Source: Brevundimonas subvibrioides
GTDB taxonomy: Bacteria; Pseudomonadota; Alphaproteobacteria; Caulobacterales; Caulobacteraceae
Reading direction: 5' to 3'
Assembly (NCBI RefSeq): GCF_002280785.1
Contig: NZ_NCEQ01000010.1
Location: 1 to 64,000, forward strand
DNA length: 64,000 nt
Shown: one piece after another, positions 12,293 to 40,392 of the stretch
Numbering within the stretch: position 1 is the stretch's first letter
Layout of the letters: every line of letters begins with the position of its first letter
Program-made: the position numbers and the translations under genes
Notes under the pieces: model-generated
Seen by the model: the letters and a program-made list of their open reading frames with translations, nothing else
The model's database searches: none
Told to the model about the DNA's origin: nothing

Positions 12293-12402
12293 GACGGGTA
12301 TCCTGAAACTCGGTATTGCGTTGGCGTATCGAGCGGCGGTGCTTATCCTGAAAGGGTGAGCCTGTATCCCCCCAACCTCCCCGTGCGATCGGGTCGCCGC
12401 CC

Positions 12403-13491: not shown

Positions 13492-14117
13492 CCGATACCC
13501 AAGACCCGAACTACGATGCCGAGCTGGACGAAGCCCTGGCCAACGCCGAGGCAGGTCTGGACTCCGGCCCGGCGGATGATCTGGGCCCGCTGGACGCCAT
13601 GATCGCCGAGCGCGACCAGTGGAAGGACCGCGCCATGCGGGCGGCGGCCGAGGCGGACAACGTCAAGCGCCGCACCGAGACCCAGATGAACGACGCCCGG
13701 GCCTTCGCGATCCAGCGCTTCGCCAAGGACCTGCTGGGCGTGGCCGACAATCTGGAGCGCGCCCTGATGGCTGCGCCCAAGGACGCGGACGCCGGCGAGG
13801 CCGGTCTGGTGACCGGTCTGGAACTGACGCAGAAGTCCCTGCTGCAGGCCTTCGAGACCAATGGGCTGAAGCGCGTCGCGCCGGGGCCGGGCGAGACCTT
13901 CGACCCGCATCTGCACCAGGCCATGATGGAACAGCCCTCGGCCGAGGTTCCGGGCGGCAGCATCCTCGTGACCATGCAGGCCGGCTACGAACTGTTCGGC
14001 CGCACCGTGCGTCCGGCCATGGTCGTCGTCGCCGCCAAGGGCTCCGGCCCGCAGGGCGGCAACCCCTATGGCGCAGCGCCCGGCGGCATAGGCGGGTCCT
14101 TCGACGGCAAGGCGTAG
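13488..14117 (+). CDS. grpE: Nucleotide exchange factor GrpE
   Basis: GrpE releases ADP from DnaK. It has 209 residues and a GTG start overlapping the hrcA stop. The N-terminus is acidic, a coiled-coil helix follows ([20 protein letters not shown]), then the beta-wing head with [14 protein letters not shown] and [17 protein letters not shown]. dnaK and dnaJ are encoded about 2.4 kb downstream rather than adjacent. Confidence 0.95.
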
Positions 14118-14251
14118 TCCCGGTCCTCCCCCGATGGGGGAGGTGGCTCGAAGCGAAGCGTAGAGACGGAGGGGGCTCGGTCCAGACGCGGCGTCTGCGG
14201 CCGGCCCCCTCCACCGCTCCGCAGTCCCCCTCCCCCGATGGGGGAGGAGTT
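14118..14251. repeat. Intergenic palindromic repeat element
   Basis: The 134-base gap is filled by nested inverted repeats. Two copies of CCTCCCCC-gat-GGGGGAGG (at about 14126-14144 and 14228-14248) flank a larger imperfect inverted repeat built on ggagggggc / gccccctcc. Purine-rich linkers include gaagcgaagcg. The layout resembles dispersed REP-like intergenic elements. Only this copy is present here, apart from a loose hairpin match at 18486-18510. It could act as a bidirectional transcription stop between grpE and the convergent hydrolase gene. Confidence 0.6.
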
Positions 14252-15151
14252 CTACTTCAGCTTCGCCTCGAACAGCGCCAGCAGTCGGGCCCAGCCGTCG
14301 GCGGCCTCGGTCGCGCGATAGGAGGCTCGGTAGTCGGCGTGGAAGCCGTGTGGGGCGTCGGGATAGAGTTTGATGCCGCTCTCGGTCGCGCCCGCGGCCT
14401 CCAGCGCCGCCTGCATGGCGGCGACGGTGTCGTTGGGGATGCCCTGGTCCTGGCCGCCGTAGTTGCCGATGACGACGCCCTTCAGGTCGTCGGCCAGATC
14501 GACCGGGAAGGGCTGGCCCGCGGCGACCTGTTCCGGCGTGGCGGTCGGCGAGGGGGCCAGGCGGCCGTACCAGGCGACGCCGGCGTCGATCGCGGCGAAG
14601 CGGGCGGCGGCCTGCCATACGACCTTGCCGCCCCAGCAGAAGCCGGTGATCCCGACCTTGTCGACATTCGCCCATAGCTGGCCCGAGGCCCACTCAAGTG
14701 TGGCGTTGATGTCGCCCATGACCTGTTCGTAGCCGGCGGCGCCGACGATGGCCTGGATGCGCTGCATATCGGCGAGCGGGGCCGGGTCCTCGACGCGGAC
14801 GAAGAAGGCCGGGGCGATGGCGACGTAACCGGCCTTGGCCAGGCGGCGGCAGACGTCCTGGATATAGGCGTGCAGGCCGAAGATCTCCGACACCACGATC
14901 ACAACGGGGAAGGGGCCGTCGCCTTCGGGGCGGGCGACATAGGCCGGCAGGTCGAAGGCGTCGGCCGAGGGATAGGAGACCATCCCGGTCGCCAGGCCCT
15001 CGGAGTCGGTCGTGATCGGCTGGGCCTCCTGGGCCAGGGCGGCGACCGCATAGCCGGTGAACATGGCTCCCGCCGTCAGCCCGCCCAGGGATCGGCGCGA
15101 GAACCGGAAATCGTCGGCGGTCTGGCCTTCGGGGCGGATCAGGACGGTCAT
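14252..15151 (-). CDS. Dienelactone hydrolase family protein with Tat signal
   Basis: An alpha/beta hydrolase of the dienelactone hydrolase family. I chose ATG 15151, which has a ggagg ribosome-binding site just upstream and gives 299 residues. The N-terminus has a twin-arginine export motif (SRRSLGG, arginines 19-20) followed by a hydrophobic stretch, so it is probably exported folded. The nucleophile is C172 in GFCWGGK, the family glutamate E89 is in VSEIFG, and an acidic residue in GNYGGQDQG and a His in PHGFHADYR complete the triad. Substrate is unknown. It is separated from grpE by a palindromic element. Confidence 0.88.
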   Translation of the reverse strand: MTVLIRPEGQTADDFRFSRRSLGGLTAGAMFTGYAVAALAQEAQPITTDSEGLATGMVSYPSADAFDLPAYVARPEGDGPFPVVIVVSEIFGLHAYIQDVCRRLAKAGYVAIAPAFFVRVEDPAPLADMQRIQAIVGAAGYEQVMGDINATLEWASGQLWANVDKVGITGFCWGGKVVWQAAARFAAIDAGVAWYGRLAPSPTATPEQVAAGQPFPVDLADDLKGVVIGNYGGQDQGIPNDTVAAMQAALEAAGATESGIKLYPDAPHGFHADYRASYRATEAADGWARLLALFEAKLK

Positions 15152-15226
15152 GGGCGCTTCCTCCGGGATTTTGGTCGCCGACTGTGACGAGACCGCGCGG
15201 TTCCGTCGAGTCACCGCCCTGTGACC

Positions 15227-15832
15227 TTACGCCGCCTGGCGAAGGGTCAGGTTGATCCGCCCGCCGCCGGGCATCAGCCGCGACGATCCCGCCAGCAGCC
15301 GATCGATCCCGTGGCGCGCCAGTCGAGCGGGGCCGGTCAGGGCGCAGACGTCGCCTGACGCCAGTTTCAGTGATCGCGTCGGCCCCTTGCCCGCCGGGCC
15401 GATGCGGAAGACGGCGGTGTCCCCCAGCGACACCGACAGGACCGGGGCGCAGAGATCGGCCTCGTCCCTGTCCTGATGCAGCCCCATGCGGGCGTCCTCG
15501 CGGTAGAGGTTGATCAGGCAGGCGTCGGGCGGCCGGGGCCAGCCGGTCAGCTCGGCCCACAGGTTCAGAAGAACGGGCGGGATCGGCGGCCAGGGCGCGC
15601 CGGTCCCGGGATGGGTCGGCTGGTAGCGGTAGCCGGCACGGTCCGAGACCCAGCCGAGCGCGCCAAAATTGCTCATCCTGACCGAGAACGGCTTCCCGCC
15701 CGGGGTCACCGGTCGATAGAGGGGCGCCATGGCCAGGGCGGTGTCGATTTCGGCCAGCAGGGAGGCCTGCGCGGCCTCGTGCAATCGGCCGGGCCAGTAG
15801 TGAAATCCGGGGAGGTCGGGGAAGGGCTCCAT
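15227..15832 (-). CDS. alkB: AlkB-family alpha-ketoglutarate-dependent dioxygenase (DNA/RNA demethylase)
   Basis: AlkB oxidatively removes N-alkyl lesions from bases. The 201 residues carry NLYREDARMGLHQDRDE with iron ligands H119 and D121, the distal H174 (ARHGIDR), and the 2-oxoglutarate-binding arginines R192 and R198 (RINLTLR). MSNFG and WAELTGWP are also family segments. The length is typical of bacterial AlkB. It is divergent from nothing nearby and reads in the same direction as the hydrolase beyond it. Confidence 0.93.
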   Translation of the reverse strand: MEPFPDLPGFHYWPGRLHEAAQASLLAEIDTALAMAPLYRPVTPGGKPFSVRMSNFGALGWVSDRAGYRYQPTHPGTGAPWPPIPPVLLNLWAELTGWPRPPDACLINLYREDARMGLHQDRDEADLCAPVLSVSLGDTAVFRIGPAGKGPTRSLKLASGDVCALTGPARLARHGIDRLLAGSSRLMPGGGRINLTLRQAA

Positions 15833-15841
15833 CGCCCTCGT

Positions 15842-16258
15842 CTAGCGCGTGAAGTAATAGTCCGCGACCTGGCAGGCGTTGATGCCGCTGCGTTGCAGGC
15901 TCTGGCCGTTGTCGAACTCTGCGCGCAGCGAATAGCGGCAGGCGCCGGAGCCGTCGTCGATGGTCACCACCACGCTCTGGCCCGGCGACAGGGTGCCCGA
16001 GCCCAGGAGGTCGTCGCCCCAGTCCCCGCCGCTCGAGGCGTAGAGATAGGTCATCGACCAGCCGGTCTGGTTATGGATGCGGACATCGCGATTGTAGGCG
16101 TCCTGCGATGGACGCGCCGGAGCAACCGCATGGACCATCGCGACCCGCTTCGACGCCGATTCCGCCGTCGCCTGGGCGCCCGACAGGCCAAGCAGTGTCA
16201 GGCCCAGGATCAGGGCAGGTGTGAACCGGCGGGGCTTGAGAGGCGGGGAGCGCATCAT
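15842..16258 (-). CDS. Small secreted protein, paralogue of the 21457-21822 protein
   Basis: I chose ATG 16258 (138 residues) because it begins a signal peptide (RRFTPALILGLTLLGLSGAQ, cleavage near ATA-ES). The mature part holds an IHNQTGWSMTYLYASSG strand, GTLSPGQSVVVTIDDGSG and a Cys-Tyr pair (ACRYSLRAEFDNGQ). The same pattern of NxTG/NGTPW, Gly-rich turn, Asp-rich DD, C-x-Y and ending Cys occurs in the protein at 21457-21822, so the two are paralogues of one small beta-rich exported family. Function is unknown. Confidence 0.75.
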   Translation of the reverse strand: MMRSPPLKPRRFTPALILGLTLLGLSGAQATAESASKRVAMVHAVAPARPSQDAYNRDVRIHNQTGWSMTYLYASSGGDWGDDLLGSGTLSPGQSVVVTIDDGSGACRYSLRAEFDNGQSLQRSGINACQVADYYFTR

Positions 16259-24017: not shown

Positions 24018-24062
24018 TGGTGCGCCCAGGTGACTCGAACACCTGACCCCCGGCATTTGCGA
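24018..24062 (-). repeat. Diverged tRNA 3'-half fragment (old attachment site, left edge of accessory region)
   Basis: Read on the minus strand, the end is a T-arm (AGGTG-TTCGAGT-CACCT) plus acceptor and CCA, like the 3' half of a tRNA, with no 5' half. The T-arm and variable loop match the tRNA-Thr at 48008-48083 and the fragment at 32645-32689 exactly over 23 bases, but the acceptor strand differs (GGGCGC). The flanking sequence to the right resembles that right of 32689. I read it as an old att site. Confidence 0.6.
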
Positions 24063-24419
24063 AATCCATTCAAGCCGACCGGTCAAACCAGAGTGGCGGC
24101 ATGGGTTGGCGGGCTTGTCGCCCTCGGACCGACGGCCCACCCCTCCTCGTGCCGGTCTGGACGATGAGGGTGGATGCAAAGTTCCGGTGTTGTGGCATCC
24201 TTCGGATGGGAGCGCCGACAATTCCGACCTGCGCCATACCTGCCAGGACGGGACGAAGTCGCTCGGCCAGGTCGCGTTCTAGCGCGGCGCCCTGTGTCTG
24301 CGACGCGCCAGGATCGGCGAGGGGATCGGTCGCAACTAGACCATGCTTGAGATCATGGCGGGGCGACTTTCACCATCGGTCCGGTGCAACGCCGACGGCT
24401 GGGAAGCGGCTGGTCCTGG
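24063..24419. other. Gene-free island end, homologous to 32690-32910
   Basis: I see no convincing gene in these 357 bases. Several blocks recur in order at the other island end: aagccgaccggtcaaacc, ggcatgggtt, gggagcg and aattccgacctgcgccatac (near 24222-24241 and 32849-32868). This marks a shared, decayed element terminus. Confidence 0.55.
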
Positions 24420-25454
24420 TCAAGGCGACGACTGATAGACGCGAAAATCGCCCATCCCGAGGTAGCCGGATGTTCTGATCAGGCGAATGTAGAGCATGGT
24501 CGCGCCGCCAAGACTGATGGATGTGTAAGCGCCGTCCACGACCCCGCTGACCGTGCCGGCGGACGTCCAGTTGACCCCGTCGTTGGAGTACTCGACAGCG
24601 GCGCCGTTGGTGTAATAGGCGCCCCATCCTCCCGGCGCGCTCGCGTCGGCGGAAGCGATCTCGATTCGGCTGACGGCCTGGCTGGTTCCGAGGTTCGCCT
24701 GAATGATCTCAGTGGTTCCCCAGTTCGTGCCATGAATGGAAGACGGGCTGTTGAAATTGCCGTCCCTCATGCCCCCCGACGTCGTCAGACCCGTGTAGCC
24801 CCCGTAGTTCGACGTGGTGGAGAAGCTGACCGGGACAACCTCCGTGCCTCCGCCCCCACACGATGTTCCAGTCGCCCAGCGGGGTACGCCGCCCGTGCTG
24901 TAAACGACGAGATTGCCGTCGTTCTGGACCTGCAAGAACGCGCCGGTAAATCCATAGGCGCCGTTCCACCAGACCGGTGTGTAGTTGGGGCCGTAGAGAA
25001 CCAGGTGGCCGTCGCCTTGCAGGACGAGAAACTGAGCCTGGGCCCCGGCTGTCCCCGAAGACCACTTCACCGCCGTTCCGCACCTCAGGACCAGATCGCC
25101 GTCCGCTTGAAGGGCCAGGGTGACGTTGTTGTTAGGCGAGTAGATCGTCTGCTGGAGCGTGATCGACTCGTTTTCCAGCAGGCGCGACGGAGTACTCGGG
25201 AATGCGACGGCCGCGATCGACCTGGCCGAAATATTGTCTGCTGGATCGATGCTGTAGCCGGACCAGCCCGCAACGCCAGCGGCGTTCACGTCGGTGGTAC
25301 CGGTCAGCCGCCCGTGGACGTCGTAGATGAAGGTCTCGGCGACCTGGGCCAGGCTCGGCTGGACGCTTGCCAGTGACGCAAACGCGCTTGCGACGCCAAA
25401 CCAATGACCAAGTCCTCGCCGCTGACGAACGACATCGCTACCCATCGATCGCAT
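24420..25454 (-). CDS. Secreted YD-repeat / B-lectin / discoidin-domain protein
   Basis: ATG 25454 is preceded by ggggga and gives 344 residues. An N-terminal signal-like segment (WFGVASAFASLASVQPSLAQ) is followed by one RHS/YD-type repeat (FIYDVHGRLTGTTD, YSIDPADNISAR). Residues about 85-200 form a bulb-lectin-like domain with three repeated motifs (LQADGDLVLR, LQGDGHLVLY, VQNDGNLVVY). The C-terminal 140 residues look like an F5/8-type-C carbohydrate-binding domain (GGMRDGNFNSPSSIHGTNWG to YLGMGDFRVYQ). It is divergent from the RHS gene and probably secreted to bind glycans. The domain mix is unusual. Confidence 0.8.
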   Translation of the reverse strand: MRSMGSDVVRQRRGLGHWFGVASAFASLASVQPSLAQVAETFIYDVHGRLTGTTDVNAAGVAGWSGYSIDPADNISARSIAAVAFPSTPSRLLENESITLQQTIYSPNNNVTLALQADGDLVLRCGTAVKWSSGTAGAQAQFLVLQGDGHLVLYGPNYTPVWWNGAYGFTGAFLQVQNDGNLVVYSTGGVPRWATGTSCGGGGTEVVPVSFSTTSNYGGYTGLTTSGGMRDGNFNSPSSIHGTNWGTTEIIQANLGTSQAVSRIEIASADASAPGGWGAYYTNGAAVEYSNDGVNWTSAGTVSGVVDGAYTSISLGGATMLYIRLIRTSGYLGMGDFRVYQSSP

Positions 25455-25599
25455 CACTTCCCCCTAACCCTGCTCAAACTTTCGACGACAAGCTTGACCG
25501 CAGACGCTCTTTCGAACAACCCTGTGGTGTGAAAATATCGCGAAGGTTGCAGATTGCTCCACTCTCGGAGCACATTCGTTTGAGGCAAAGGGGGATCGT

Positions 25600-28500
25600 G
25601 TGCAGTCCAGGTCGCTGCCTTCCGGCATCATGAACGTCTCGCAGGGCCACGGCGCCGTACCTCTGGTGGTTTGCGCAATGCTCGTGGTCTCATGGACCAG
25701 CGCTGCCAGCGCCCAGAGCGCGCTCGTGCCGCCATCTCCCGTCGAAGCGGTCGATCAATTCGGCGTCGAGCTGTCATCGGGCTCAGTCCAGGTCTCTTCG
25801 CCGACCATCAGTGTCGGAGACCCCGCAAATGGCGGGCTGAGTTTCACCGCGAACTGGGACTCAAGCGTCCGAGACTGGCGCTACAGCAGCTGGGGCGCGA
25901 TCAACAAGCCGGTCGGCTCAGACCCCAACTGCTACAATTACTTAACCCTTGTTTACATGGGCCAATCCAACCTCTTTCAGCGCGACACGTGCGCTGGCGG
26001 ATATGAGCTGATCGATGGGCTCGGCACGCTGACGGAGGCGTCGGGGACCTGGACCTACACAGCGCCAGACGCAAGTGTGGCCGTCTATCAGGGCACGTCG
26101 CGGGTCGTAGTGAACGGCGCGCTGGTCGATCAGACCCGCATTCAGACCATCACGAAGCCTAATGGCGAAATCATCAGCTACGCCTACGGCGGTGTGAGCC
26201 CGGCCTCGGTCACCAACAATTACGGCTATCAAATTCACTTCGATTACACGGGCGGCGGTCTCTACAAAGTCACTGCGCTGAACAATGCGGTGGATCCTTG
26301 CGCTCCGACCGCCGCGACCTGCTCCTTCACGCAAACCTGGCCGAGCCTGACGTTCACGACCGGTGCATCCGGGCTGGAGCGGCATGTCACGGACTCGCTG
26401 AACCGAACGACGCGGATCATCTTCGACAATGCCGATCCGCTCCTGGCCAATGTCGTTGGAGTTGCGCGTCCGACGACCACCTCGGGGTCTTCGGTGACGT
26501 ACGTGAACGAACGGATATTCCCGTTCGGTTTGAGAGTAACCGGGGCCTCTGACGGCGCAGGTACCTGGACGTACGCGTATCAACCGCGCCCTTGCGGTTT
26601 TACTCCAAGCCCGGATCCCGCTGATTGCCCGCCGCCCGGCTACGACTACGACCTGACGACGACGATCACTTCGCCGGCGGTCGCCCCATCAACGCCACGC
26701 GCTACAACGGTCTACAAATTCAGCTGGTACGAAAGGCCGTTCAGCAACGGACACATGATGTCCGAGCTCGTGTCCGTGACCAATGCGCTCAGCCAGACGA
26801 CGGGCGTGGGGATCACGGGGGCGGGCTTTCAAGGAGCCACCTATCCGGACAACAACGGCGTTACGATCACGCGAAACTATCTGACCGGCGTCGTCGAATC
26901 CGTGACGGAGTTTGGCAAGTCGGGGCCGAGCGGTCCACTTGCCGCGACCGAGTACACATACCCCGCCTGCACGTCGAACCCTGTGGTTTGCCGTCGCGCG
27001 ACGGTCGTTACCGACCCGCGTCTTAATGCGACAACCTACACCTATGATGCCGCCGGCAATGTGCTGACAGCAACGTCACCGGTTCCGGTCACGGGCGCCG
27101 TCCGTCCTCAAACCCGGTTCAGCTATCAGCAGCAGAACGCCTGGTATCACCAGAACGGCTCGACCTCGATCACCCAGAATCCCAACCCGATCTGGGTTCA
27201 GGTCACCCAGTCGCAATGCGCCACGCTCGCGGGCCAGACAGGCTCGACTCCAGCGGCCTGTATTGGAACGGCCGATGAAATCCGTACGACCGCGACCTAC
27301 CAGATCGGCAGTAGTACGGCAGCGTCCAATCTCCTGCCTGTCTCGATGTCGACCCAAGCAGGTGACAACAGCCTGGTCGCCACCGTCACGACAACCTACG
27401 ACCCTGTCGGCAATCCTCTTACGGTCGATGGCCCGCTGCCAGGCCCGGCGGACACGACTCGCCATGTCTACGACGCCATGCGTCAACAGGTCGGCGTTAT
27501 AGGTCCGGATCCTGATGCCGGCGGCGCGCGCCTGTTCCCTGCCAGCCGGACGACCTACAACCCGGACGGTCAAGTCACGGTCGTCGAGCGCGGCACGACC
27601 CTGGGTCAATCCAACCTGGACTGGGCCGCCTTCTCGGCGCTGCAGACATCGACTTCCGCCTACAACGCCCAGGGACGTCTCTTCCGGGAGCAGTTGGCTC
27701 CGGGAACGCCAGCCGCCAGTCTGACCGACTATGCCTATGACGCCATGGGTCGTCTGACGTGCACGGCCCAGCGGATGAATCCCGACAACTTCGCATCGCC
27801 GCCGACGAACGCGTGTGCTCAAACGACCGTCGGCCGCTTCGGTCCGGACCGTATCAGCCTCAACAGCTACGATCTGGCCAGCCGTCTAGTCCAGGTCCAG
27901 ACCGGCTACGGCACTTCGGCCGCTCTCCCTGAGCGGGTGCAAGGCTGGACAGCGAACGGCAAGGTTGACTGGATCGAGGACGGAGCCGGCAACCGCTCGG
28001 ACTATGTCTATGACGACATGGACCGTCTCTACCGCCTCTACTTCCCGGTCACGACGGTCGGCTCTCATACCGCCAACAGCGTCGATTTTGAGGAATACGG
28101 CTACGACGCCAACGACAATCCAACCACCAAGCGTACGCGGTCGGGCCTTGTGTTCACGACGGCGTTCGACACCCTCAACCGCATCACCTCCATCGATGCG
28201 CCGTCCGGCTCCAACGACGTCTGGTACAGCTACGACAATCTCGGCCGCCGCCTGTCCGCGTCGCACGCCCCGGGCGCGCCGGGTTGCTCGACGACGGCTG
28301 TCTGCTCGACCTGGGATGCGCTGAGCCGGCAGACGACCGAGACGACGGCGCTGGGCACGATGACCAGCGCCTGGGACATCGCCGGGCGGCGCATTGAGCT
28401 GAAATGGCCCGATCTGTTCTCCGTGACCTATGCCTATGACCTCGACGACCAGATGCGGTCGATCAGGCAGGCCGGGGTCACGACGATCGTCGCCTATGCC

Positions 28501-29259
28501 TACGACGACCTGGGTCGACGGACGGCCGTGGGACGCGGAAACGCCGTGGCCACGACCTATGGCTATGACGCCGCCTCGCGCCTGACGAGCCTCAGCCACG
28601 ATCTCGGCGGCACGGCCTCGGACGTGACGTTCAGCTACGGCTACACCCCGGCCAGTCAGATCCAGACTCTGCGGCGGTCGAACGCGACCTATTTCTACTC
28701 ACCGCCGCCGGTCACGGTGGGCTATGGCGTCAACGGCCTGAACCAGTCGATCTCGGCGGGCGGCGCCACCCTGACCTGGAGCGCGCAGGGCAATCTGACC
28801 GGAGACGGGACGCGCAGCTACAGCTACGACGCCGCCAACCGCCTGACCGGCGCGGGGTCGTCCACCCTGGCCTACGACCCGCTGGACCGGCTGGCCGAGA
28901 TGACCGGCACGCTCGGCGCCCGTTATCAATACGATGGAGTTGGCGTGGCGGCCGTCTATGCGACGGGGTCCGGCACGATCAGCAATCGATTGATCCGGGG
29001 CCCCTGGCCGGACGAGCTGGCGGTCTCCTACGCCGGCACGCGGCGCCCTACACCCTGGCCTACGACGATTACGGCGCGCCCCGGCCCGGCAACGCAGGGC
29101 GGTTCATGTACACGGGCCAGATGTGGATGCCGGACTTCGGGGCCTACCACTACAAGGCCCGCGCCTACCGGCCGGATCTCGGACGGTTCCTGCAGGCCGA
29201 CCCCGTGGGGTATGCGCAGGGGCTCAATCTGTATGCCTATGTCGGGAATGATCCGGTGA
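25600..29259 (+). CDS. Secreted RHS/YD-repeat protein, core of a polymorphic toxin (frame broken near 29040)
   Basis: The GTG start at 25600 follows ggggga; ATG 25630 is an alternative. A signal peptide (VPLVVCAMLVVSWTSAASAQ) precedes a long shell of YD repeats, for example TYTYDAAGNVLTATS, YAYDAMGRLTCTAQ, YVYDDMDRLYRLY, YDNLGRRLSAS and YSYDAANRLTGAG. The RHS cage normally ends in a conserved core leading to a variable toxic tip. Here the frame is good to SNRLIRGPWPDELAVSYAG (about 29030) and then shifts. The last roughly 70 residues of this frame are therefore out of register, and the true core end (YTGQMWMPDFGAYHYKARAY) continues in the frame of 29106-29795. The usual HADHLG segment is missing. 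Confidence 0.85.
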   Translation: MQSRSLPSGIMNVSQGHGAVPLVVCAMLVVSWTSAASAQSALVPPSPVEAVDQFGVELSSGSVQVSSPTISVGDPANGGLSFTANWDSSVRDWRYSSWGAINKPVGSDPNCYNYLTLVYMGQSNLFQRDTCAGGYELIDGLGTLTEASGTWTYTAPDASVAVYQGTSRVVVNGALVDQTRIQTITKPNGEIISYAYGGVSPASVTNNYGYQIHFDYTGGGLYKVTALNNAVDPCAPTAATCSFTQTWPSLTFTTGASGLERHVTDSLNRTTRIIFDNADPLLANVVGVARPTTTSGSSVTYVNERIFPFGLRVTGASDGAGTWTYAYQPRPCGFTPSPDPADCPPPGYDYDLTTTITSPAVAPSTPRATTVYKFSWYERPFSNGHMMSELVSVTNALSQTTGVGITGAGFQGATYPDNNGVTITRNYLTGVVESVTEFGKSGPSGPLAATEYTYPACTSNPVVCRRATVVTDPRLNATTYTYDAAGNVLTATSPVPVTGAVRPQTRFSYQQQNAWYHQNGSTSITQNPNPIWVQVTQSQCATLAGQTGSTPAACIGTADEIRTTATYQIGSSTAASNLLPVSMSTQAGDNSLVATVTTTYDPVGNPLTVDGPLPGPADTTRHVYDAMRQQVGVIGPDPDAGGARLFPASRTTYNPDGQVTVVERGTTLGQSNLDWAAFSALQTSTSAYNAQGRLFREQLAPGTPAASLTDYAYDAMGRLTCTAQRMNPDNFASPPTNACAQTTVGRFGPDRISLNSYDLASRLVQVQTGYGTSAALPERVQGWTANGKVDWIEDGAGNRSDYVYDDMDRLYRLYFPVTTVGSHTANSVDFEEYGYDANDNPTTKRTRSGLVFTTAFDTLNRITSIDAPSGSNDVWYSYDNLGRRLSASHAPGAPGCSTTAVCSTWDALSRQTTETTALGTMTSAWDIAGRRIELKWPDLFSVTYAYDLDDQMRSIRQAGVTTIVAYAYDDLGRRTAVGRGNAVATTYGYDAASRLTSLSHDLGGTASDVTFSYGYTPASQIQTLRRSNATYFYSPPPVTVGYGVNGLNQSISAGGATLTWSAQGNLTGDGTRSYSYDAANRLTGAGSSTLAYDPLDRLAEMTGTLGARYQYDGVGVAAVYATGSGTISNRLIRGPWPDELAVSYAGTRRPTPWPTTITARPGPATQGGSCTRARCGCRTSGPTTTRPAPTGRISDGSCRPTPWGMRRGSICMPMSGMIR

Positions 29260-29273
29260 ACCAGACGGATCCG
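28918..29273 (+). repeat. RHS core-end repeat, copy 1
   Basis: This 356-base segment, from gcccgttatcaata to gacggatccg, recurs almost exactly as copy 2 at 30716-31059. The copies differ by one 12-base length difference at the frame-break point and scattered substitutions. It encodes the conserved RHS core end that precedes the variable tip, and is the natural crossover region for tip exchange. Confidence 0.9.
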
Positions 29274-29795
29274 GATGGTAGACAGATCCAAGGTGCGGCT
29301 TGCTTGGCCGGGGCGCCATTTGGTGGTCCGGTAGGCTGTGGGGTTGGCGTAGCCGTAAGCGCCGTCGCAACCGTTGCGGTAGGCGCTTGTACGCAGTCGC
29401 AGAGCTGCCGCGATACGGCCGGTGCTGTTTGGGATTGGCTGACCGCACCACTTCATAACGACGCAGATGCGCCGGGAGAGCCTCGCCCGGCCCCTCCTGC
29501 CAATGATGGTGTTTCCCGACCCCATGGCGCTCCAGACCACGATCAGGCCATCGATGACCGGGCGGACGAAGTTCGGGGTCAGGGCGCTGATGACATTCGA
29601 AAGAATCAAACCCAGGTCGACGCTCAAGGAAACCGGGTTGGTGACAACAGACCCGACCTCGGATACACGGACTCTAACGGCGTTCGACACAACGAGGAAT
29701 GGGGGCGCAATCAAGGTCGAGTGGAAGCCCAAGGGGATCGCGCCCGGCAGAACGATCCTAGCTGCGTAACCACAGGAACGTGCTTGCCACGATGA
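29106..29795 (+). CDS. RHS core end plus restriction-endonuclease-fold-like tip toxin (tip 1)
   Basis: The frame continues the RHS core in register (MYTGQMWMPDFGAYHYKARAY, RPDLGRFLQADPVGYAQGLN, YAYVGNDPV) to the variable junction near residue 60. A Gly/Ala-rich segment and a hydrophilic linker come next. The C-terminal 90 residues (HGAPDHDQAIDDRADEV, IRKNQTQVDAQGN, NRPDLGYTDSNG, then an EEW) have the spacing of a PD-(D/E)xK nuclease tip. No good start is apparent; it should be read as the C-terminus of the RHS gene after the frame break. 229 residues from its first ATG. Nuclease assignment is by pattern only. Confidence 0.7.
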   Translation: MYTGQMWMPDFGAYHYKARAYRPDLGRFLQADPVGYAQGLNLYAYVGNDPVNQTDPDGRQIQGAACLAGAPFGGPVGCGVGVAVSAVATVAVGACTQSQSCRDTAGAVWDWLTAPLHNDADAPGEPRPAPPANDGVSRPHGAPDHDQAIDDRADEVRGQGADDIRKNQTQVDAQGNRVGDNRPDLGYTDSNGVRHNEEWGRNQGRVEAQGDRARQNDPSCVTTGTCLPR

Positions 29796-30472
29796 CTATA
29801 CTATCGCTTTACGAACGCTTTTCCTTCTCAATACTTCCTTGCTCTCTGGGGGTTGCCCGCGAAGCGATTCTCGCTCAATCGGCAGCTTGGGGGAAACCTC
29901 TTGCAGTCGATCGCGCAACGGTGCGGGATGTTCGACCGATTTTTGACTCACCGGACGGCCCGGCTCACCCACCGGCGGTGCGAAAAGCCATTTTGTTAAG
30001 CGAGGTGGTCGGGCCCGAGGGAGTGAAAACGCTCTTTGTTAGCAGCGTAGCCGACGGCTATTCATCAATGGTCTATACGATCTCGGGAAATCTGCCTGGC
30101 CTCCATCTGGCAGTACAGATTTCCAGATTGTCTATCGAGTATCCCCGCAATGCACTGACGGCTATTAAAAGCCAGGAAGCTGTCAGGGTTATTTACTCGA
30201 TGAAAGATGCAAGTTCTTGGGAATTCTTCGAAAGAGGACGAATTTTACCATTCGAGCAGATCGATTTTTACAAGGCGCGGAGAAAGCGAGATCGCCTTAC
30301 GCCTGATATAATCGACCGATACATATCCAAGCTTGGATATGGAACATTGGACGAGGTGTTCTGGACTTCAAACGAAGCAGCTCATTTAATTTGTGACGCC
30401 TCGTTTAGGCTCGCTGAGGGTTGTAAACCTGACATGGGATCGTCGGAGGTCAACATAAAAGGGGTGTCGTAA
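29792..30472 (+). CDS. Putative immunity protein for tip 1
   Basis: ATG 29792 overlaps the tip-1 stop (ATGA at 29792-29795), the coupling usual for toxin/immunity pairs, and gives 226 residues. The frame can open at GTG 29780, but that start is less likely. Base composition is clearly AT-richer than the RHS core. I do not recognise a family. Visible segments include AVRKAILLSEVVGPEG and SISRLSIEYP-like strands (AVQISRLSIEYPRNALTAI). Its role is inferred from position only. Confidence 0.65.
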   Translation: MTILSLYERFSFSILPCSLGVAREAILAQSAAWGKPLAVDRATVRDVRPIFDSPDGPAHPPAVRKAILLSEVVGPEGVKTLFVSSVADGYSSMVYTISGNLPGLHLAVQISRLSIEYPRNALTAIKSQEAVRVIYSMKDASSWEFFERGRILPFEQIDFYKARRKRDRLTPDIIDRYISKLGYGTLDEVFWTSNEAAHLICDASFRLAEGCKPDMGSSEVNIKGVS

Positions 30473-30715
30473 CCTCTTGCTTCGCCATCGATTTTAGCGC
30501 CCCAACGACTTGCCCCGAGTTGCCCGCTCTTACTGCCGTGGTGCCCGAGGGCAGGATAGGCGTCGCGCCGGCATTGTCTGACAGCCTTGGCCGTGGTGGT
30601 CCGAGCGGGTGTCGTCGGTGCCCGCCGGCGTGATCAGGGCTTGAGGTCTTCCTGGCGCTGCGCCCGGCGGCGATCGCGCAGGCAGGGGCGGGCTCCAGCC
30701 ACCTTCCGATGCCGG
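30473..30715. other. Gene-free spacer between immunity gene 1 and RHS copy 2
   Basis: The first 50 bases or so (cgtaacctcttgcttcgcc, then aacgacttgccccgagttg) match the sequence after immunity gene 2 (32129-32190). The remainder is GC-rich and carries no gene I can support. Confidence 0.6.
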
Positions 30716-31059
30716 GCCCGTTATCAATATGATGGTGCTGGCGTGGCGGCCGTCTATGCGACGGGGTCCGGCACGATCAGCAATCGATTGATCCGGGGCC
30801 CCTGGCCGGACGAGCTGGCGGTCTCCTACGCCGGCACACCCTGGCCTACGACGACTACGGCGCGCCCCGCCCCGGCAACGCAGGCCGGTTCATGTACACG
30901 GGCCAAATGTGGATGCCGGACTTCGCGGCCTACCACTACAAGGCCCGCGCCTACCGGCCGGACCTCGGACGGTTCCTGCAGACCGACCCGGTCGGGTATG
31001 GGCAGGGGCTCAATCTGTATGCCTATGTCGGGAATGATCCGGTGAATGGGACGGATCCG
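30716..31059 (+). repeat. RHS core-end repeat, copy 2 (orphan, 5'-truncated)
   Basis: This near-identical copy of 28918-29273 is not attached to an RHS shell. The same frame break occurs between the YAG and LAYDDYG-like codons (near 30830-30842), with 12 fewer bases than copy 1. It links an alternative tip (31060-31605) to homology that would permit recombination into the RHS gene. Confidence 0.9.
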
Positions 31060-31605
31060 ACCGGGATGGCGCAGGATCGCTTCGATCAGCAGTCGAGACG
31101 TCGAGATATTGGTAACGCAGCGGCCGATGCCCAGAACCGAGAATCGGCGGAACGGTTGATTGACGGCGTCCGCGCGATCATCAACGACATCAGGAACGAC
31201 CCGCTGGGAGCGTTGGCTGACGGTGCCATGATCGTCTTCGACGGGGCCACGATTCCCAGTGGAGAAGCGGCTGTTGGCATAGGGCTTCGTCGGGGAGCGC
31301 GGGAGGGAGCTGAAGATATTGCCGAGGGCGTTGTATACAGGCGCAATAATACTGAAACTGGCAGGTGTTACATTGGCCGCTGCAATAGCGACCAGCTATA
31401 CTCCACGCGCCAAAGGGCACACGACAGAGCGCGGGGCACTCGCCACGAGTATGAACTGTTGGAGCGATCACAACCTGGTCGGGCTCTACGAGAAGCAGAG
31501 CAGCGACACATCGATGCAAATGGCGGCCCGACAAATCTATCCAATCCCAATGGCGGACTGGAGAACCGCCGGAATGAGATTGATCCGAGGCGCCGAAGAG
31601 AATGA
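30892..31605 (+). CDS. Orphan RHS C-terminal module with GIY-YIG-like tip toxin (tip 2)
   Basis: The first 55 residues are the RHS core end (YTGQMWMPDFAAYHYKARAY to YAYVGNDPVNGTDPTG). After the junction comes a helical linker, then a C-terminal domain with VVYRRNNTETGRCYIGRCN, a HDRARGTRHEYELL segment, and a Glu helix (ALREAEQRHIDANGG). This is the order expected for a GIY-YIG/URI-type nuclease. 237 residues from the ATG at 30892, which is probably not a natural start. Without a shell or start it is probably silent until recombined. Confidence 0.72.
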   Translation: MYTGQMWMPDFAAYHYKARAYRPDLGRFLQTDPVGYGQGLNLYAYVGNDPVNGTDPTGMAQDRFDQQSRRRDIGNAAADAQNRESAERLIDGVRAIINDIRNDPLGALADGAMIVFDGATIPSGEAAVGIGLRRGAREGAEDIAEGVVYRRNNTETGRCYIGRCNSDQLYSTRQRAHDRARGTRHEYELLERSQPGRALREAEQRHIDANGGPTNLSNPNGGLENRRNEIDPRRRRE

Positions 31606-32096
31606 ATAAGCTACCCAAAAATACTGCCAAAATTAATAAGGGAACGCTGGTCGCGATACCTGCGAGCAATGAAAAATTCTCGCTATCACACGTCTATTTC
31701 CCAGGAATAAACTTTTACATTGTTTTGTATGAAGGTCTTTGGGATCTAAACGAATTACCTTACGCTCCTAAGAGTAAGCCGATACTGGCGTCATGGACTA
31801 ACGACGCCGAGATATATCGAGGTAGATGGATTATAATTGGAGAGGCGCCTTTTGAGGCGTCAGTGACTGAGCCTGAGTACAAGGTAATCGTAGGCGGTGA
31901 AGAAATGGTCGAATCATTTGATGGAAAATTTCGACGATCTCCAAGATCTCTAGATAGACTATTGCAAAATCGAAAAAGCCGCTCCCCTCTCTTATTGGAA
32001 GACGCAGCGCGAGCATTCTACGGTCTTGGCGATCGTCCGGCGAGTTACGATGATATGTTGGTGGCGCGCCCATTAACCCAAACGGGTGGGAATTAA
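31602..32096 (+). CDS. Putative immunity protein for tip 2 (Imm26-like)
   Basis: The ATG overlaps the tip-2 stop (ATGA at 31602-31605), as with pair 1. The 164-residue product starts with a beta-rich segment (KGTLVAIPASNEKFSLSHVYFPG) and a central WDLNELPYAPKSKPILAS / WIIIGEAPF pattern. This pattern, a barrel followed by WxxIG, resembles the Imm26 family. Composition is AT-rich. Function is inferred from position and this weak resemblance. Confidence 0.68.
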   Translation: MNKLPKNTAKINKGTLVAIPASNEKFSLSHVYFPGINFYIVLYEGLWDLNELPYAPKSKPILASWTNDAEIYRGRWIIIGEAPFEASVTEPEYKVIVGGEEMVESFDGKFRRSPRSLDRLLQNRKSRSPLLLEDAARAFYGLGDRPASYDDMLVARPLTQTGGN

Positions 32097-32134
32097 TGCT
32101 ATGGGTCGGAAGGCAAGATAAAAGGGCGTCGTAA

Positions 32135-32158
32135 CTTCTTGCTTCGCAAGAGGTTTTT
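32135..32158 (+). terminator. Rho-independent terminator after immunity gene 2
   Basis: An eight-pair stem CTTCTTGC / GCAAGAGG with a three-base loop is followed by TTTTT. The homologous place after immunity gene 1 (from 30475) has the left arm but a broken right arm. Confidence 0.75.
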
Positions 32159-32225
32159 GCCACTCCGACGACCTGCGCTGAGTTGGGACTTGGAGGATCA
32201 CTGACCGGCGCAGATTGTGATGTGA

Positions 32226-32438: not shown

Positions 32439-33035
32439 CTTGGCCGCCGGTTCCCGGACGCCCAGACCGACGGCTGTGCGCGCGGGCTGCCGCTCAAGGC
32501 GCCCTTGGCCTCAAGGCCTTATCCAAAGCGTTCTAGTCGCAAGGTACGCCGCGCGCAGGGGAATGAACCCCACTTTGGCCGCCACTCCTGTCCCAACGGG
32601 AAGGCCCGTCCGCCTGAGGCGATGTCCATGTCCTATGGGAAAGGTGGTGCCGCTTAGGTGACTCGAACACCTGACCCCCGCATTACGAAATCCAAGGAAG
32701 CCGACCGGTCAAACCCAGTGCCGGCATGGGTTTGAAGGGCCCCCGGCGGCCTCGAAAGTTGGCCGACCCAACCCCTTCCCAGTCCGGGCGAAGCGGGTGG
32801 AATCGACGTTCCCAAGTTAAGGCGCCTTCCGGTGGGAGCGACCGGAATTCCGACCTGCGCCATACCTGCAAACGTGACCGAAGGCGGGGCTTCCAGGTGG
32901 CGTATCGGCGGGGTGTCCAGGCGGGTCTCGAAAACCCCGACACCCAACGACCAGCTGTTCTGAGCGGTGGCTGAGCGTCTGTCTCAATGACGAATTCTGG
33001 CGTATCAACACCACTCGTTCCCACCGGAGGCCCGC
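32439..33035. other. Junction region between the two islands
   Basis: This stretch holds the right end of the left island (about 32439-32631), the tRNA-Thr fragment (32645-32689) and the left end of the right island (32690-32910), which resembles 24063-24280. No intact gene is seen before the MucR-like gene at 33036. Confidence 0.6.
32645..32689 (-). repeat. Exact 45-base copy of the tRNA-Thr(CGT) 3' half (att site between the islands)
   Basis: From TGG to cattacgaa it is identical to 48008-48052, covering anticodon loop to CCA on the minus strand. The match extends leftward to 32632 (58 bases, two mismatches) against 47995-48052. The tRNA 5' half is absent, as expected for the distal att copy of an element inserted in the tRNA 3' end. 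Confidence 0.9.
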
Positions 33036-33748: not shown

Positions 33749-34867
33749 ATGTCGATCATCCAGTCCTCCGACCCTGCGCGGTCGGTGCGAACCCTGTTGG
33801 CTGCCGTCACGGCCGGTGTCATGGCCCTGGTCTGGTCCGGGGCCGCCACGGCCCAGAACGCCTACATCACCAATCAAGGCGACGGCACCGTCTCGGTGAT
33901 CAACACAGCCACCAATACCGTCACCGCCATCGTGACGGTGGGGAGCAATCCTTACGGCGTGGCCGTGAGCCCCAATGGAACACGCGCCTATGTCGCGAAC
34001 TACAGCTCCAACACCGTCTCGGTGATCGACACCGCCACCAATACTGTCATCGCCAACGTGCCCGTGGGCAACGTTCCCTACGGCGTGGCCGTGAGCCCCG
34101 ACGGGACCCGCGTCTATGTCGTGAACTCCAACTCCAACAGCGTCTCGGTGATCAACACCGCCACCAACACCGTCGTCGGCCCAGCCATTGCCGTGGGGAG
34201 CACTCCCACGGGCGTGGCTGTGACCCCCGACGGCGCCCGGGCCTATGTTGCGAACACCAGCTCCAACACCGTCTCGGTGATCAACACCGCCACCAATACC
34301 GTCATCGCCAACGTGACCGTGGGCAGCAGTCCCTACGGCGTGGCCGTGAGCCCCGACGGGACCCGCGCCTATGTCGCGAACCAGAACTCCAACAGCGTCT
34401 CGGTGATCAACACCGCCACCAATACCGTCGTCGGCTCAGCCATCGCCGTAGGCAGCGCTCCTGTCGGCGTGGCCGTGACCCCCGACGGAACCCGTGCCTA
34501 TACCGCAAACCTCGCCTCCAACACCGTCTCGGTGATCAACACCGCCACCAATACCGTCATCGCCAACGTGACCGTGGGGAACAATCCTTTCGGCGTGGCC
34601 GTGAGCCCTGACGGCGCCCGCGCCTATGTCGCGAACTTAAGTTCCAACACCGTCTCGGTGATCAACACCGCCACCAACACCGTCGTCGGCTCAGCCATTG
34701 CCGTAGGCAGCGGTCCCGCCGCCTTCGGCCAGTTCATCCGGCCGGCCGCTGCCGCGCCCGTTCCCGTTCCCGTTCCGACCCTGTCGGAATGGGCGATGAT
34801 CCTGTTCGGCCTTGGCCTGGCGGGTGGGGCGGCGGTGCTGGTCCAGCGGCGGCGGCAGTTCGGCTGA
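33749..34867 (+). CDS. Exported seven-repeat YVTN beta-propeller protein with IPTL-CTERM-type tail
   Basis: 372 residues with a signal peptide (LLAAVTAGVMALVWSGAATA). The body is seven near-identical repeats of about 42 residues with the signatures NTVSVINTATNTV, VGVAVTPDG / YGVAVSPDG and RAYVAN, enough for one closed propeller. The C-terminus has a VPTLSEWA motif, one transmembrane helix (MILFGLGLAGGAAVLV) and RRRQFG. This is an IPTL-CTERM-like sorting signal that a dedicated exosortase-type enzyme would process. No such enzyme is in the window. The DNA repeats (about 126 bases) invite blade-number change. Confidence 0.9.
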   Translation: MSIIQSSDPARSVRTLLAAVTAGVMALVWSGAATAQNAYITNQGDGTVSVINTATNTVTAIVTVGSNPYGVAVSPNGTRAYVANYSSNTVSVIDTATNTVIANVPVGNVPYGVAVSPDGTRVYVVNSNSNSVSVINTATNTVVGPAIAVGSTPTGVAVTPDGARAYVANTSSNTVSVINTATNTVIANVTVGSSPYGVAVSPDGTRAYVANQNSNSVSVINTATNTVVGSAIAVGSAPVGVAVTPDGTRAYTANLASNTVSVINTATNTVIANVTVGNNPFGVAVSPDGARAYVANLSSNTVSVINTATNTVVGSAIAVGSGPAAFGQFIRPAAAAPVPVPVPTLSEWAMILFGLGLAGGAAVLVQRRRQFG

Positions 34868-36951: not shown

Positions 36952-38103
36952 TCAGGCGGCTGCCTGCTTCGCCGCACCGGCCTCGACGGCCGCCAGCAGG
37001 GTGTCGTTGGCGAGGTGGGCGTAGCGCTGGGTCGACTGGTAACTGGCGTGACCCAGCACCTTGCCGACGGCGAACAGGTCGACGCCGCTGTTGACCATGA
37101 ACGACGCCGCCGAGTGCCTCAGGTCGTGGATCCTCAGGCCGGGCAGACGCGCCACCCGGATCGCCCGCTGCCACCCGTGCTTGATCGACACGAACGGAAG
37201 GCCGGTCGCCGGGTTAGGCACCAACAAAGGAACGTCATCGAACCGGGGTAGGTCCGCGATGACGGCCAACGCCGCCGACGACAAAGGCACGTGGCGCGGC
37301 TTGCCCGTCTTGCTGGTCGGGATCAGCCAGGACTTACGTTCGACGTTAACGTCCGACCATTTGGCATCGAGCAACTCGCGCAGCCGAGCGCCCGTCAGGA
37401 GAAGCAGGCCGACGATGTGGCGAAGCTGCGTGTTGTTGGACACCGCCACGGCTTCACGCAGTCGGCTGGATTCCTCCTGACTGAGAAACCTCTCGCGATT
37501 GTTGTTCAGCGGCTTCCTGACCACACCACGCGTCGGGTTCTTGTCGGCACCCATGATCTCCCAGCGAGCGCCCAAGACGAACGATCGACCCAGGATCACG
37601 CGCATCTTCTCGACCGTCGCCGGAGCCGAGCCGGCGGCACGCTTTTCGGCGAGCCACAGGCTGACACCACGCGGGGTGATCTCGGTGATCCGCACCTTGC
37701 CCCACTTCGGCAGGATGTGGTTCCGCATGCAGGCCTCCAAGGTCGTGTAGGACTTCAGGTGCAGCTTCGCGTCGGCGAGGTGCATGGCCGCGAGTTCACG
37801 GTAGAGCGGGATAGCCTTTGCATCGGCTTTCGCCGCGCCGGGGTCGCCTCCCATGACGACCTCCGACCGCAGTTGCTGCGCCCGCTTCTTGGCCGCCGCG
37901 AACGTCAGGTCGTCCACTTTTCCGATCTTGAACTGGCGTTGGCGGCCAGCGGCATCGGCGTAGCGAAGGTAGTAGGTCTTGCCGCCGGTGGAGCGGCATT
38001 CCAGCACGAAGCCGGTGACGGTCTCGTCGTAGTAGTCGGTCTTCGCCCTGCCGGGTGCGCAGTAGGCAAGAGTCACGTATGTTTGGTCGAGCCGTGCCTT
38101 CAT
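36952..38103 (-). CDS. Tyrosine recombinase / phage-type integrase
   Basis: 383 residues with an N-terminal DUF4102-type arm-binding domain (TYYLRYADAAGRQRQFKIGK), a core-binding SAM-like domain (about 95-195), and a catalytic domain with R240 (TGARLREL), K265 (SKTGKPR), H326 and R329 (HDLRHSAAS), H352 (GHASYQ) and nucleophile Y361. This is the prime candidate for insertion at tRNA-Thr. It is convergent with the small membrane protein gene and heads a minus-strand module. Confidence 0.95.
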   Translation of the reverse strand: MKARLDQTYVTLAYCAPGRAKTDYYDETVTGFVLECRSTGGKTYYLRYADAAGRQRQFKIGKVDDLTFAAAKKRAQQLRSEVVMGGDPGAAKADAKAIPLYRELAAMHLADAKLHLKSYTTLEACMRNHILPKWGKVRITEITPRGVSLWLAEKRAAGSAPATVEKMRVILGRSFVLGARWEIMGADKNPTRGVVRKPLNNNRERFLSQEESSRLREAVAVSNNTQLRHIVGLLLLTGARLRELLDAKWSDVNVERKSWLIPTSKTGKPRHVPLSSAALAVIADLPRFDDVPLLVPNPATGLPFVSIKHGWQRAIRVARLPGLRIHDLRHSAASFMVNSGVDLFAVGKVLGHASYQSTQRYAHLANDTLLAAVEAGAAKQAAA

Positions 38104-39162: not shown

Positions 39163-40392
39163 TCAGTACGGTTTCCCCCACTGCTTAGGAGGGCTGAACC
39201 CGTCGTCGGCGCGGACCGGCACCCGCCATTTCATCGTACCGTTGATCTTCTTCGGCTCGCCTAAAAGGTTCCTGAGAGCCGCCCCAGCTTCGCGCGCCAT
39301 CGGGTTGGTTAGGGGGAAACCGAGCCATTCGAGAACTTCGGTGGCCGACATTGCGTCAAGACCTTTGGCACCGATGCGGTCGATATCGACCCTCTCCGCC
39401 AGTTGTTCAGCAACTGGGCTGGCGGTGCTGTGACGCGAGTTCAGTTCGTGGAGCAGACGCTCCTCGTCGTCCGCCAACCACCATGTCTCGCCGTCCTCAA
39501 CTTCCTCAGCGAGCTGGGCAAACACCTGCTGCATGTCGATCCGGTGTCGCCAGTTCAGGGAGGCGACCGGGATGGTCCAGAAGCGTGTGTTCCCGGTCGG
39601 GTCCTGAAGGAATTGGTGCTCGTTTACGGTTGCAGCGAACACCGTCCGTCTGGGGTAGCTCGACTCCCGACGATCGTATGGCCGACGAACCCGGTCAGTA
39701 TCGTCCGTCAAGAAGCCCTTTAGCCGAGCGATGTCCTTCTTGAACGAGCTGTCGAGTTCGCCGATCTCTGTGATCGCAAACCCGATCGCGCCGATAAGGG
39801 AATCCTTATTCGACGGATCCATGTGGTGACCGAGCTTGATCATGCGATCGGCCAGGTCCGCGTCGGAGATCAGGGCTTTGATCCAGCTGGATTTCCCTGC
39901 TCCCTGTGCACCTTGAAGGGTCAGGACGCCTCGGCTCCGAAAGTTGCTTCGGGTTGCCGCCGCTGCGACGCTGCGGAGCCACTTCCGCAGGATGACCTCC
40001 TTCAGACTATCGGGATACCCTTCCGCGTGAACGACGGTCCCGTAGACGTCAGGTAGCCGGTCTGTGCCGTCCCATGATCGACTGCGTATCCAGTCTCTGA
40101 CCGGGTTGTAGGCATTCTTGTTGGCGATCGCTTCCACAAAACCCGGGACATTGCCGGTAGGTATGTGGTGCTCAGCGGCCAAACTGATGATGTAGGTGAG
40201 GGTGACGTTGTCGACGTTGTCTCGTGATCCCGGTTTGTCCGGGATCACGATTTCGTCGCGCTTGCTGACCTCGTTGTAGCGCACCTCGATGCCGGCATAG
40301 TTCAGTAGGTGCTCGATGTTGGCGATCGTGGCAGGCGGGCGATCTGACCTTGGGGGCGGACGGTCCGGGAATGGCCCGATCTCGTTTCCCAT
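39163..40392 (-). CDS. VirE/virulence-associated E-type DNA-dependent ATPase
   Basis: 409 residues. The middle has a Walker A (LQGAQGAGKSSW), a family-type DPSNKDSLIGAIG followed by ITEIGELDSSF, DTDRVRRPYDRRE, RRTVFAATVNEH, and a GNTRFWTIPV segment, all typical of VapE/VirE helicase-like proteins of P4-type satellites and islands. There is no primase domain in front, unlike long versions. It starts two bases after the 102-residue gene ends, so they are likely coupled. Probably serves island replication. Confidence 0.88.
   Translation of the reverse strand: MGNEIGPFPDRPPPRSDRPPATIANIEHLLNYAGIEVRYNEVSKRDEIVIPDKPGSRDNVDNVTLTYIISLAAEHHIPTGNVPGFVEAIANKNAYNPVRDWIRSRSWDGTDRLPDVYGTVVHAEGYPDSLKEVILRKWLRSVAAAATRSNFRSRGVLTLQGAQGAGKSSWIKALISDADLADRMIKLGHHMDPSNKDSLIGAIGFAITEIGELDSSFKKDIARLKGFLTDDTDRVRRPYDRRESSYPRRTVFAATVNEHQFLQDPTGNTRFWTIPVASLNWRHRIDMQQVFAQLAEEVEDGETWWLADDEERLLHELNSRHSTASPVAEQLAERVDIDRIGAKGLDAMSATEVLEWLGFPLTNPMAREAGAALRNLLGEPKKINGTMKWRVPVRADDGFSPPKQWGKPY

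What the first reader, a model, noticed from the sequence alone, without database searches (positions are those of the whole stretch)
25600..32160. RHS polymorphic-toxin locus with two alternative tip/immunity cassettes
A secreted YD-repeat protein is followed by tip 1 (PD-(D/E)xK-like) with an ATGA-overlapping immunity gene. A second, shell-less copy of the RHS core end then carries tip 2 (GIY-YIG-like) with its own ATGA-overlapping immunity gene. Identical core ends allow recombination to swap tips. Both shell and lectin neighbour have Sec-type signals rather than type VI or VII features.
Basis: partly seen in the sequence, partly recalled or inferred. Interest (0 to 1): 0.8.

Follow-up and report, generated by a model that had tools for sequence, protein, structure and literature searches.

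The report
RHS toxin cassettes plus YD companion
A bacterial toxin locus with one main and one spare toxin/antidote cassette is of a known kind and looks frame-broken as assembled, but the secreted lectin gene beside it belongs to a small companion family found next to most related toxin genes examined here, for which no description turned up.

Summary
The layout is real: a YD-repeat shell with a Sec-like signal, tip 1 plus immunity 1, then a second core end with tip 2 plus immunity 2; both immunity starts overlap the tip stop by ATGA. Corrections: the core ends are 94% identical, not identical; in both copies shell frame and tip frame differ at one spot, so as assembled neither tip is fused to upstream YD sequence; tip 2 fits the published Tox-URI1 (GIY-YIG) signature with an Imm26-like partner; tip 1 has no detectable family. 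Main-plus-orphan rhs cassettes are known. The unexpected part is the lectin neighbour. It belongs to a set of small secreted proteins with one YD unit and a variable adhesive domain or none. Such a gene lies within 2.5 kb upstream of 43 of 55 newly sampled shells of the order (34 of 36 genomes), against 0 of 77 control fragments. Five literature searches showed no description. I infer that it docks on the RHS cage as cap or targeting adaptor.

The parts
24420..25457 (-). companion: signal-like stretch, one (degenerate) YD unit, B_lectin, F5/8 type C domain
   Evidence: F5_F8_type_C_2 1.1e-10, B_lectin 3e-4, RHS_repeat 0.029; hydropathy; homologues beside relatives' shells
25600..29259 (+). RHS shell ORF; homology to relatives in this frame ends near 29037, the rest is read out of frame
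28918..29273 (+). shell/core end, copy 1 (contains frame break at about 29031-29041)
29106..29795 (+). core end (Rhs_assc_core) plus linker and tip 1, in the tip frame
   Evidence: no family for the tip
29792..30472 (+). presumed immunity 1, ATGA overlap with tip 1
   Evidence: position only, no family above cut-off
30458..30498 (+). cassette-end repeat 1
   Evidence: 80% to 32120-32160; similar stretch behind the first orphan cassette of G015
30716..31059 (+). shell/core end, copy 2 (contains frame break at about 30829-30836)
30892..31605 (+). core end plus pre-toxin and tip 2; GIY-YIG-like domain at about 31327-31602
31602..32096 (+). presumed immunity 2, Imm26-like, ATGA overlap with tip 2
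   Evidence: Pfam Imm26 E 0.17, below cut-off; 22% over 93 aa to an Imm26 protein
32120..32160 (+). cassette-end repeat 2, hairpin followed by T-rich stretch
24018..24243 (.). left att-like repeat
   Evidence: 76% to the right repeat; diverged copy of the tRNA-Thr 3' end
32640..32880 (.). right att-like repeat with a 49-50 nt copy of the tRNA-Thr 3' end (98%)

Best explanation
This is a Sec-signal RHS polymorphic-toxin locus with one main toxin/immunity cassette and one orphan cassette downstream, lying between att-like repeats in a tRNA-Thr island. In working relatives the shell should fold into a YD cage, the core end cleave off the C-terminal toxin, and orphan cassettes serve as a store that recombination in the shared core end can fuse to the shell. 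Tip 2 is most likely a GIY-YIG nuclease neutralised by an Imm26-like protein; tip 1 is an unclassified toxin. In this assembly both copies carry a frame break just upstream of the core, so neither tip is exported as a shell fusion: the cassettes are now silent or expressed on their own, and the immunity genes may be what is kept. The divergent secreted lectin gene is part of the system: a one-YD companion which I infer docks by its single YD unit on the cage and acts as cap, chaperone or target-binding adaptor. Shown: layout, repeat, frame break, recurrent gene association. Inferred: toxicity, nuclease activity, immunity, export route, docking.
For: Layout and repeat. Frame break in both copies, absent from the 13 full-length relatives read. 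Tip 2 signature, Hymenobacter relative and Imm26 neighbour. G015 array: shell plus four in-frame core ends with other tips. Known precedent in Salmonella (PMC3967940 passages; PMC7043789 passages). Companion beside 43 of 55 new shells, 0 of 77 control fragments, and beside both RHS genes of plasmid pASTEX02. No VipA match in the genome.
Against: Tip 1 and immunity 1 have no family, so their being toxin and antidote rests on position only. Tip 2 and immunity 2 score below Pfam cut-offs; one paper links Imm26 with RNase toxins rather than DNases (PMC11669294 passages). Both models are too poor to judge folds. Twelve of 55 new shells lack a counted companion, among them every one taken from G503 and G631; one companion is solitary. 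The window's own companion is the one of 55 without RHS_repeat at 0.01. Docking was not tested.
Confidence: 0.65

Rival explanations
1. The frame breaks are sequencing or assembly errors; the real gene is an intact shell plus tip 1 with an orphan tip 2, working like the Salmonella locus.
For: The 13 full-length relatives read here, and five G015 copies, keep the segment; a draft genome of 36 contigs; tip frames keep mostly synonymous differences, 8 of 11 codons.
Against: Two copies that differ by an indel and by substitutions show the break at the same spot with the same frame shift. No reads were available.
Confidence: 0.25
2. The companions are YD debris left by rhs rearrangement, not working partners.
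For: YD repeats recombine; one companion is solitary and one lies by an RHS remnant; the window's own YD unit is degenerate.
Against: In the 43 counted loci the HMM finds one YD unit per companion, right after a hydrophobic stretch, followed by diverse adhesive domains; four positions are invariant in 55 of 55; tandem and divergent forms recur over the order and on a named plasmid; 0 of 77 control fragments.
Confidence: 0.15
3. The locus is dead: both cassettes are relics decaying after the frame break, kept by chance in an island.
For: Frame break in both copies; degenerate companion YD unit.
Against: Shell, both tips and both presumed immunity genes are otherwise long open frames with exact ATGA overlaps.
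Confidence: 0.3

Closest known systems
Salmonella Typhimurium rhs-main / rhs-orphan locus (PMC3967940, PMC7043789; passages seen)
   Same: Main rhs with toxin/immunity pair, then a gene fragment sharing the core end (522 bp at 95% there; 134 plus 224 nt at 94% here) with its own toxin/immunity pair
   Different: Salmonella main gene is continuous; here both copies have a frame break. The shell here has a Sec-like signal and no VipA was found in the genome
Tox-URI1 / Imm26 pairs (PMC3482391; passages seen)
   Same: Tip 2 carries the listed residues in order and its next gene resembles Imm26
   Different: Below Pfam cut-offs; activity untested
WapA of Gram-positive bacteria (PMC12704120; passages seen)
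   Same: RHS toxin with Sec signal, truncated duplications with other toxin/immunity pairs, cognate partner genes upstream
   Different: [quoted passage not shown] here a secreted one-YD protein
Tc toxin TcB-TcC cocoon and RHS plug domains (PMC8765631; passages seen)
   Same: A YD cocoon can be built from two chains, and family-specific domains close its N-terminal end
   Different: No TcA partner was looked for; the companion has one YD unit only, and docking is inferred
RHS toxins with embedded bulb-lectin or discoidin domains (PMC3482391; passages seen)
   Same: Same kinds of adhesive domain
   Different: Here on a separate secreted protein

Membership tests
RHS polymorphic toxin | YD/RHS repeats in a large shell | tested here: met
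   RHS_repeat E 8.2e-24, eight stretches
RHS polymorphic toxin | Rhs_assc core with PxxxxDPxG motif before the variable tip | tested here: met
   TIGR03696 in both tip ORFs; PVNQTDPDG and PVNGTDPTG read; motif as given in PMC8765631
RHS polymorphic toxin | Shell, core and tip in one reading frame | tested here: not met
   Frame differs in both copies; met in G015
Orphan rhs-CT/immunity module | 3' fragment sharing the core end, another tip, own immunity gene | tested here: met
Orphan rhs-CT/immunity module | Recombines with the main gene | not testable with these tools
   Shared 94% repeat only
Tox-URI1 (GIY-YIG) toxin | Y, YxG, R, [RK]xxE, N in order | tested here: met
   Tip 2 sequence against the signature in PMC3482391; that URI and GIY-YIG name one superfamily is recalled
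Tox-URI1 (GIY-YIG) toxin | Profile or fold match | tested here: inconclusive
   SegE_GIY-YIG E 0.12, below cut-off; model pLDDT 47.6
Imm26 | Pfam Imm26 above cut-off | tested here: not met
   E 0.17, 12.6 bits against 23.3; the Hymenobacter neighbour meets it
PD-(D/E)xK toxin (tip 1) | Profile or fold match | tested here: inconclusive
   No family; model pLDDT 53.5
T6SS Rhs effector | PAAR domain and a T6SS in the genome | tested here: not met
   Pfam reports only RHS_repeat in the shell; no VipA match, E. coli control positive
One-YD companion (set defined here) | Signal-like stretch, one YD unit, beside an RHS shell | tested here: met
   Window 24420-25457, 142 bp from the shell; YD unit degenerate, below Pfam 0.01. 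The window was a seed and an alignment row, so its profile score is by construction

The most novel reading that the evidence does not exclude
Sec-signal RHS toxins of this alphaproteobacterial order are two-protein machines that vary at both ends. The shell gene swaps toxin tips; a separate secreted companion with a single YD unit adds to the open edge of the YD cage and swaps target-binding domains (bulb lectin, discoidin, cadherin, Ig-like, Calx-beta, or none). It would be a T6SS-independent delivery scheme in which a small partner gene helps set the range of prey.
Probability: 0.35. Interest if true: 0.75.

Novelty: new variant of a known kind. Interest (0 to 1): 0.55.

Why it matters
How large RHS toxins leave a Gram-negative cell and reach a target without a type VI system is, to my knowledge, not settled. 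A small secreted partner gene that recurs next to the shell gives a direct handle: delete it and see whether export, stability or prey range changes. The cassette part is ordinary; its use is as a caution, since both tips are out of frame with the shell as assembled, so reading such loci from gene order alone can mislead.

Tried and rejected
Tip 1 relatives: none in plasmids, genome contigs, viral contigs or phages. Weak whole-genome hits (one, three) were read; none of the ORFs printed there looked like an RHS gene, and they were dropped. Tip 2 relatives: one plasmid; none in viral contigs, genome contigs or the other 384 of 385 class genomes. PDB sequence searches gave only chance-level matches. 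Single-sequence AlphaFold models of both tips were too poor, so no fold search was run. Rfam: two matches, both below gathering score. Plasmid search with a G016 shell N-terminus: none. A programmed frameshift was considered: I saw no slippery heptamer by eye at the junction and the relatives need none; unlikely, not excluded. The shell N-terminus as a single query found only our own genome among 337 class genomes; a 12-row profile was needed.

Rows dropped before the count of 55: profile matches with E above 1e-20 or starting after model position 45, ten loci already in the first sample, and two at contig starts (G503:C6:253, G607:C52:287). L130 (an RHS piece) and L170 (YD unit at the far end) gave HMM hits but were counted as misses; L173 (453 bp) was kept as a miss. 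Some of the 55 are near-copies (G496 three, G458 two), hence the count by genome. The HMM seeds were 13 first-sample sequences including the window, so the first sample (15 of 16; G016:C25 untestable at a contig edge) is no independent test. Likewise most companions found were rows of its query, so that call tests for strays, not for detection.

A look for type II secretion genes in the loci did not run (database building failed). That hint stays at one named plasmid and two partial hits, GspE-like in L161 and GspG-like in L159.

Full report
WHAT IS THERE. The window lies on contig C29 of a 3.31 Mb, 36-contig genome. At 25600-29259(+) is a YD-repeat shell, RHS_repeat E 8.2e-24 with eight stretches, with a hydrophobic, signal-like start ending ASAQ. 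The A and Q of that site are invariant in the 12 aligned shell N-termini. At 29106-29795 lie the core end and tip 1, at 29792-30472 the presumed immunity 1, at 30716-31059 a second copy of the shell/core end, at 30892-31605 tip 2 with its core end, and at 31602-32096 the presumed immunity 2. Both immunity genes start with ATGA over the tip stop. The two copies match at 94% in two blocks, with a 12-nt indel between them, and are the only two places found in this genome.

THE FRAME BREAK. Shell frame and tip frame differ in both copies, by the same amount. Against the G015 shell, DNA homology stops at window 29030 and resumes at 29041, with 83 bases in G015 where the window has 10; copy 2 is 12 bases shorter still. 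The 13 full-length relatives read here carry the segment in one open frame (L004 and L006, eleven). In G015 the main gene and four orphan copies keep it. So, as assembled, tip 1 is not fused to the shell and tip 2 is not fused to its own shell-end piece. After the break, 8 of 11 codon differences between the copies are synonymous in the tip frame, so that frame was under coding constraint at some time; this does not date the break. Mis-assembly cannot be excluded, but two copies that differ by an indel and substitutions share the break.

THE TIPS. Tip 2, 31327-31602, is 48% identical over 92 aa to the C-terminus of an RHS protein on a Hymenobacter plasmid, whose next gene is annotated Imm26 and matches Pfam Imm26 at 2e-8. 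Immunity 2 matches that protein weakly (22% over 93 aa, pairwise E 7e-4) and Pfam Imm26 below cut-off. Passages of Zhang et al. 2012 (PMC3482391) give Tox-URI1 as Y, YxG, R, [RK]xxE, N, with Imm26 among its partners; that URI and GIY-YIG name one superfamily is recalled. Tip 2 has VVY, YIG, R, REAE and N in order. This supports a GIY-YIG nuclease short of proof: the Pfam GIY-YIG match is below cut-off, the model is poor, and one paper associates Imm26 with RNase toxins (PMC11669294, passages). Tip 1 has no relative of its toxin domain in any search and no family; the PD-(D/E)xK reading stays open. Core end and linker of tip 1 (residues 1-142) are 45% like an HNH cassette of G015, and the pre-toxin part of tip 2 is 48% over 52 columns like that of a G016 shell: linkers and toxin domains appear to be shuffled.

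RELATIVES. G015, of the same genus, has an intact shell followed on the same strand by five further matches to the shell end. Four run in frame through the core end into different tips: one with a VHEGIHG stretch, an HNH tip with a DUF4265 stretch behind it, one unclassified, and one weakly like DUF4329 (below cut-off); the fifth is a shell-end fragment with a stop. Salmonella main/orphan rhs loci have the same build and recombine (PMC3967940, passages), and their tips can be expressed internally (PMC7043789, passages). The cassette part of the finding is therefore of a known kind.

THE COMPANION. The divergent lectin gene 24420-25457(-) has a signal-like start, a YD unit, a B_lectin and an F5/8-C domain. 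Its G015 homologue (RHS_repeat 1.1e-4, B_lectin 0.0041) lies just upstream of the shell on the same strand. In the first sample of relatives a gene with signal-like stretch and YD unit lies beside the shell in 15 of 16 testable loci; the sixteenth, G054, has one about 1.0 kb downstream on the other strand. I then built a profile of 12 shell N-termini, searched 368 genomes of the order (84 with a match) and took about 2.5 kb upstream of 55 further shells. An HMM of 13 YD units from the first sample found a companion in 43 of 55 fragments, in 34 of 36 genomes; by my count of the table, 27 have one on the shell's strand and 16 a divergent one only, some up to 1.8 kb away. The HMM finds one YD unit in each. 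The same scan of 77 control fragments of 2.7 kb, from the window and from relatives, gave none. G503 and G631 had none in any fragment taken. In 13 whole genomes searched with the companion profile, 12 had matches; of 20 companion-type matches (my count: short ORF, most of the model), 18 lie by a shell, one by an RHS remnant (G015:C3) and one is solitary in the 14 kb taken (G751). G009, without a shell match, had none. Of 55 companions scanned with Pfam, 54 match RHS_repeat (the window's own is the exception), 11 Big_9, 11 Cadherin_5, 6 B_lectin, 4 Calx-beta, 3 F5/8-C; several consist of little but signal and YD unit. On the named plasmid pASTEX02 of Asticcacaulis excentricus CB 48 both RHS genes have such a neighbour, one tandem and one divergent, annotated only as 'RHS repeat domain-containing protein', with type II secretion genes close by.

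HOW IT MAY WORK. Shown: the association, the single YD unit, the varied adhesive domains. Inferred: YD repeats build a spiral cage, so a lone YD unit could add to its open edge, and its tail could bind a target surface. That some companions lack a tail argues that the YD unit itself has a role, such as cap or chaperone. Precedents: Tc toxins build one cocoon from two chains, and RHS families differ in the plug that closes the cage (PMC8765631, passages); WapA of Streptococcus suis is coupled with cognate upstream partners for export (PMC12704120, passages); bulb-lectin and discoidin domains occur inside some RHS toxins (PMC3482391, passages), whereas here they are on a separate protein. The listings showed no paper on such a companion; only open-licence papers are held and I read few of those listed, so this is not proof of novelty.

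EXPORT AND SETTING. No VipA (T6SS sheath) match was found in this genome, with the E. coli control positive, and Pfam reports only RHS_repeat in the shell. The locus lies between two att-like repeats: the right one holds a copy (98%) of about 50 nt of the intact tRNA-Thr at 48008-48083, the left one a diverged copy. A tyrosine integrase is at 36952-38103(-). Partial copies near the intact tRNA in G002, G004, G009 and G019 suggest an island hotspot.

VERDICT. The companion set is the part worth following.

Noticed in passing
24018-24243, 32640-32880, 48008-48083, 36952-38103: The RHS locus is an 8.6 kb unit between two att-like repeats related to the 3' end of tRNA-Thr; a P4-type tyrosine integrase and a VapE-like gene (39163-40392) lie between it and the intact tRNA.
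   Followed up: partly
30458-30498 and 32120-32160: A repeat of about 40 nt, 80% alike, follows each immunity gene; a similar stretch follows the first orphan cassette of G015, and a 27-nt match lies elsewhere in this genome. The second copy folds as a hairpin.
   Followed up: partly
45186-45944: A second, unrelated GIY-YIG gene (LEM-3_GIY-YIG, E 5.2e-9) in the island.
   Followed up: no
L183 (Asticcacaulis excentricus pASTEX02), 10261-16221: Type II secretion genes lie directly downstream of an RHS/companion pair on a conjugative plasmid; partial Gsp-like hits also near shells in L159 and L161.
   Followed up: partly
L190 (G751:C1:414109-414942): A solitary one-YD companion with a cadherin-like tail and no RHS shell found in the 14 kb taken around it.
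   Followed up: no
33749-34867: A secreted YNCE-like beta-propeller protein with an IPTL-CTERM sorting motif next to the RHS unit.
   Followed up: no
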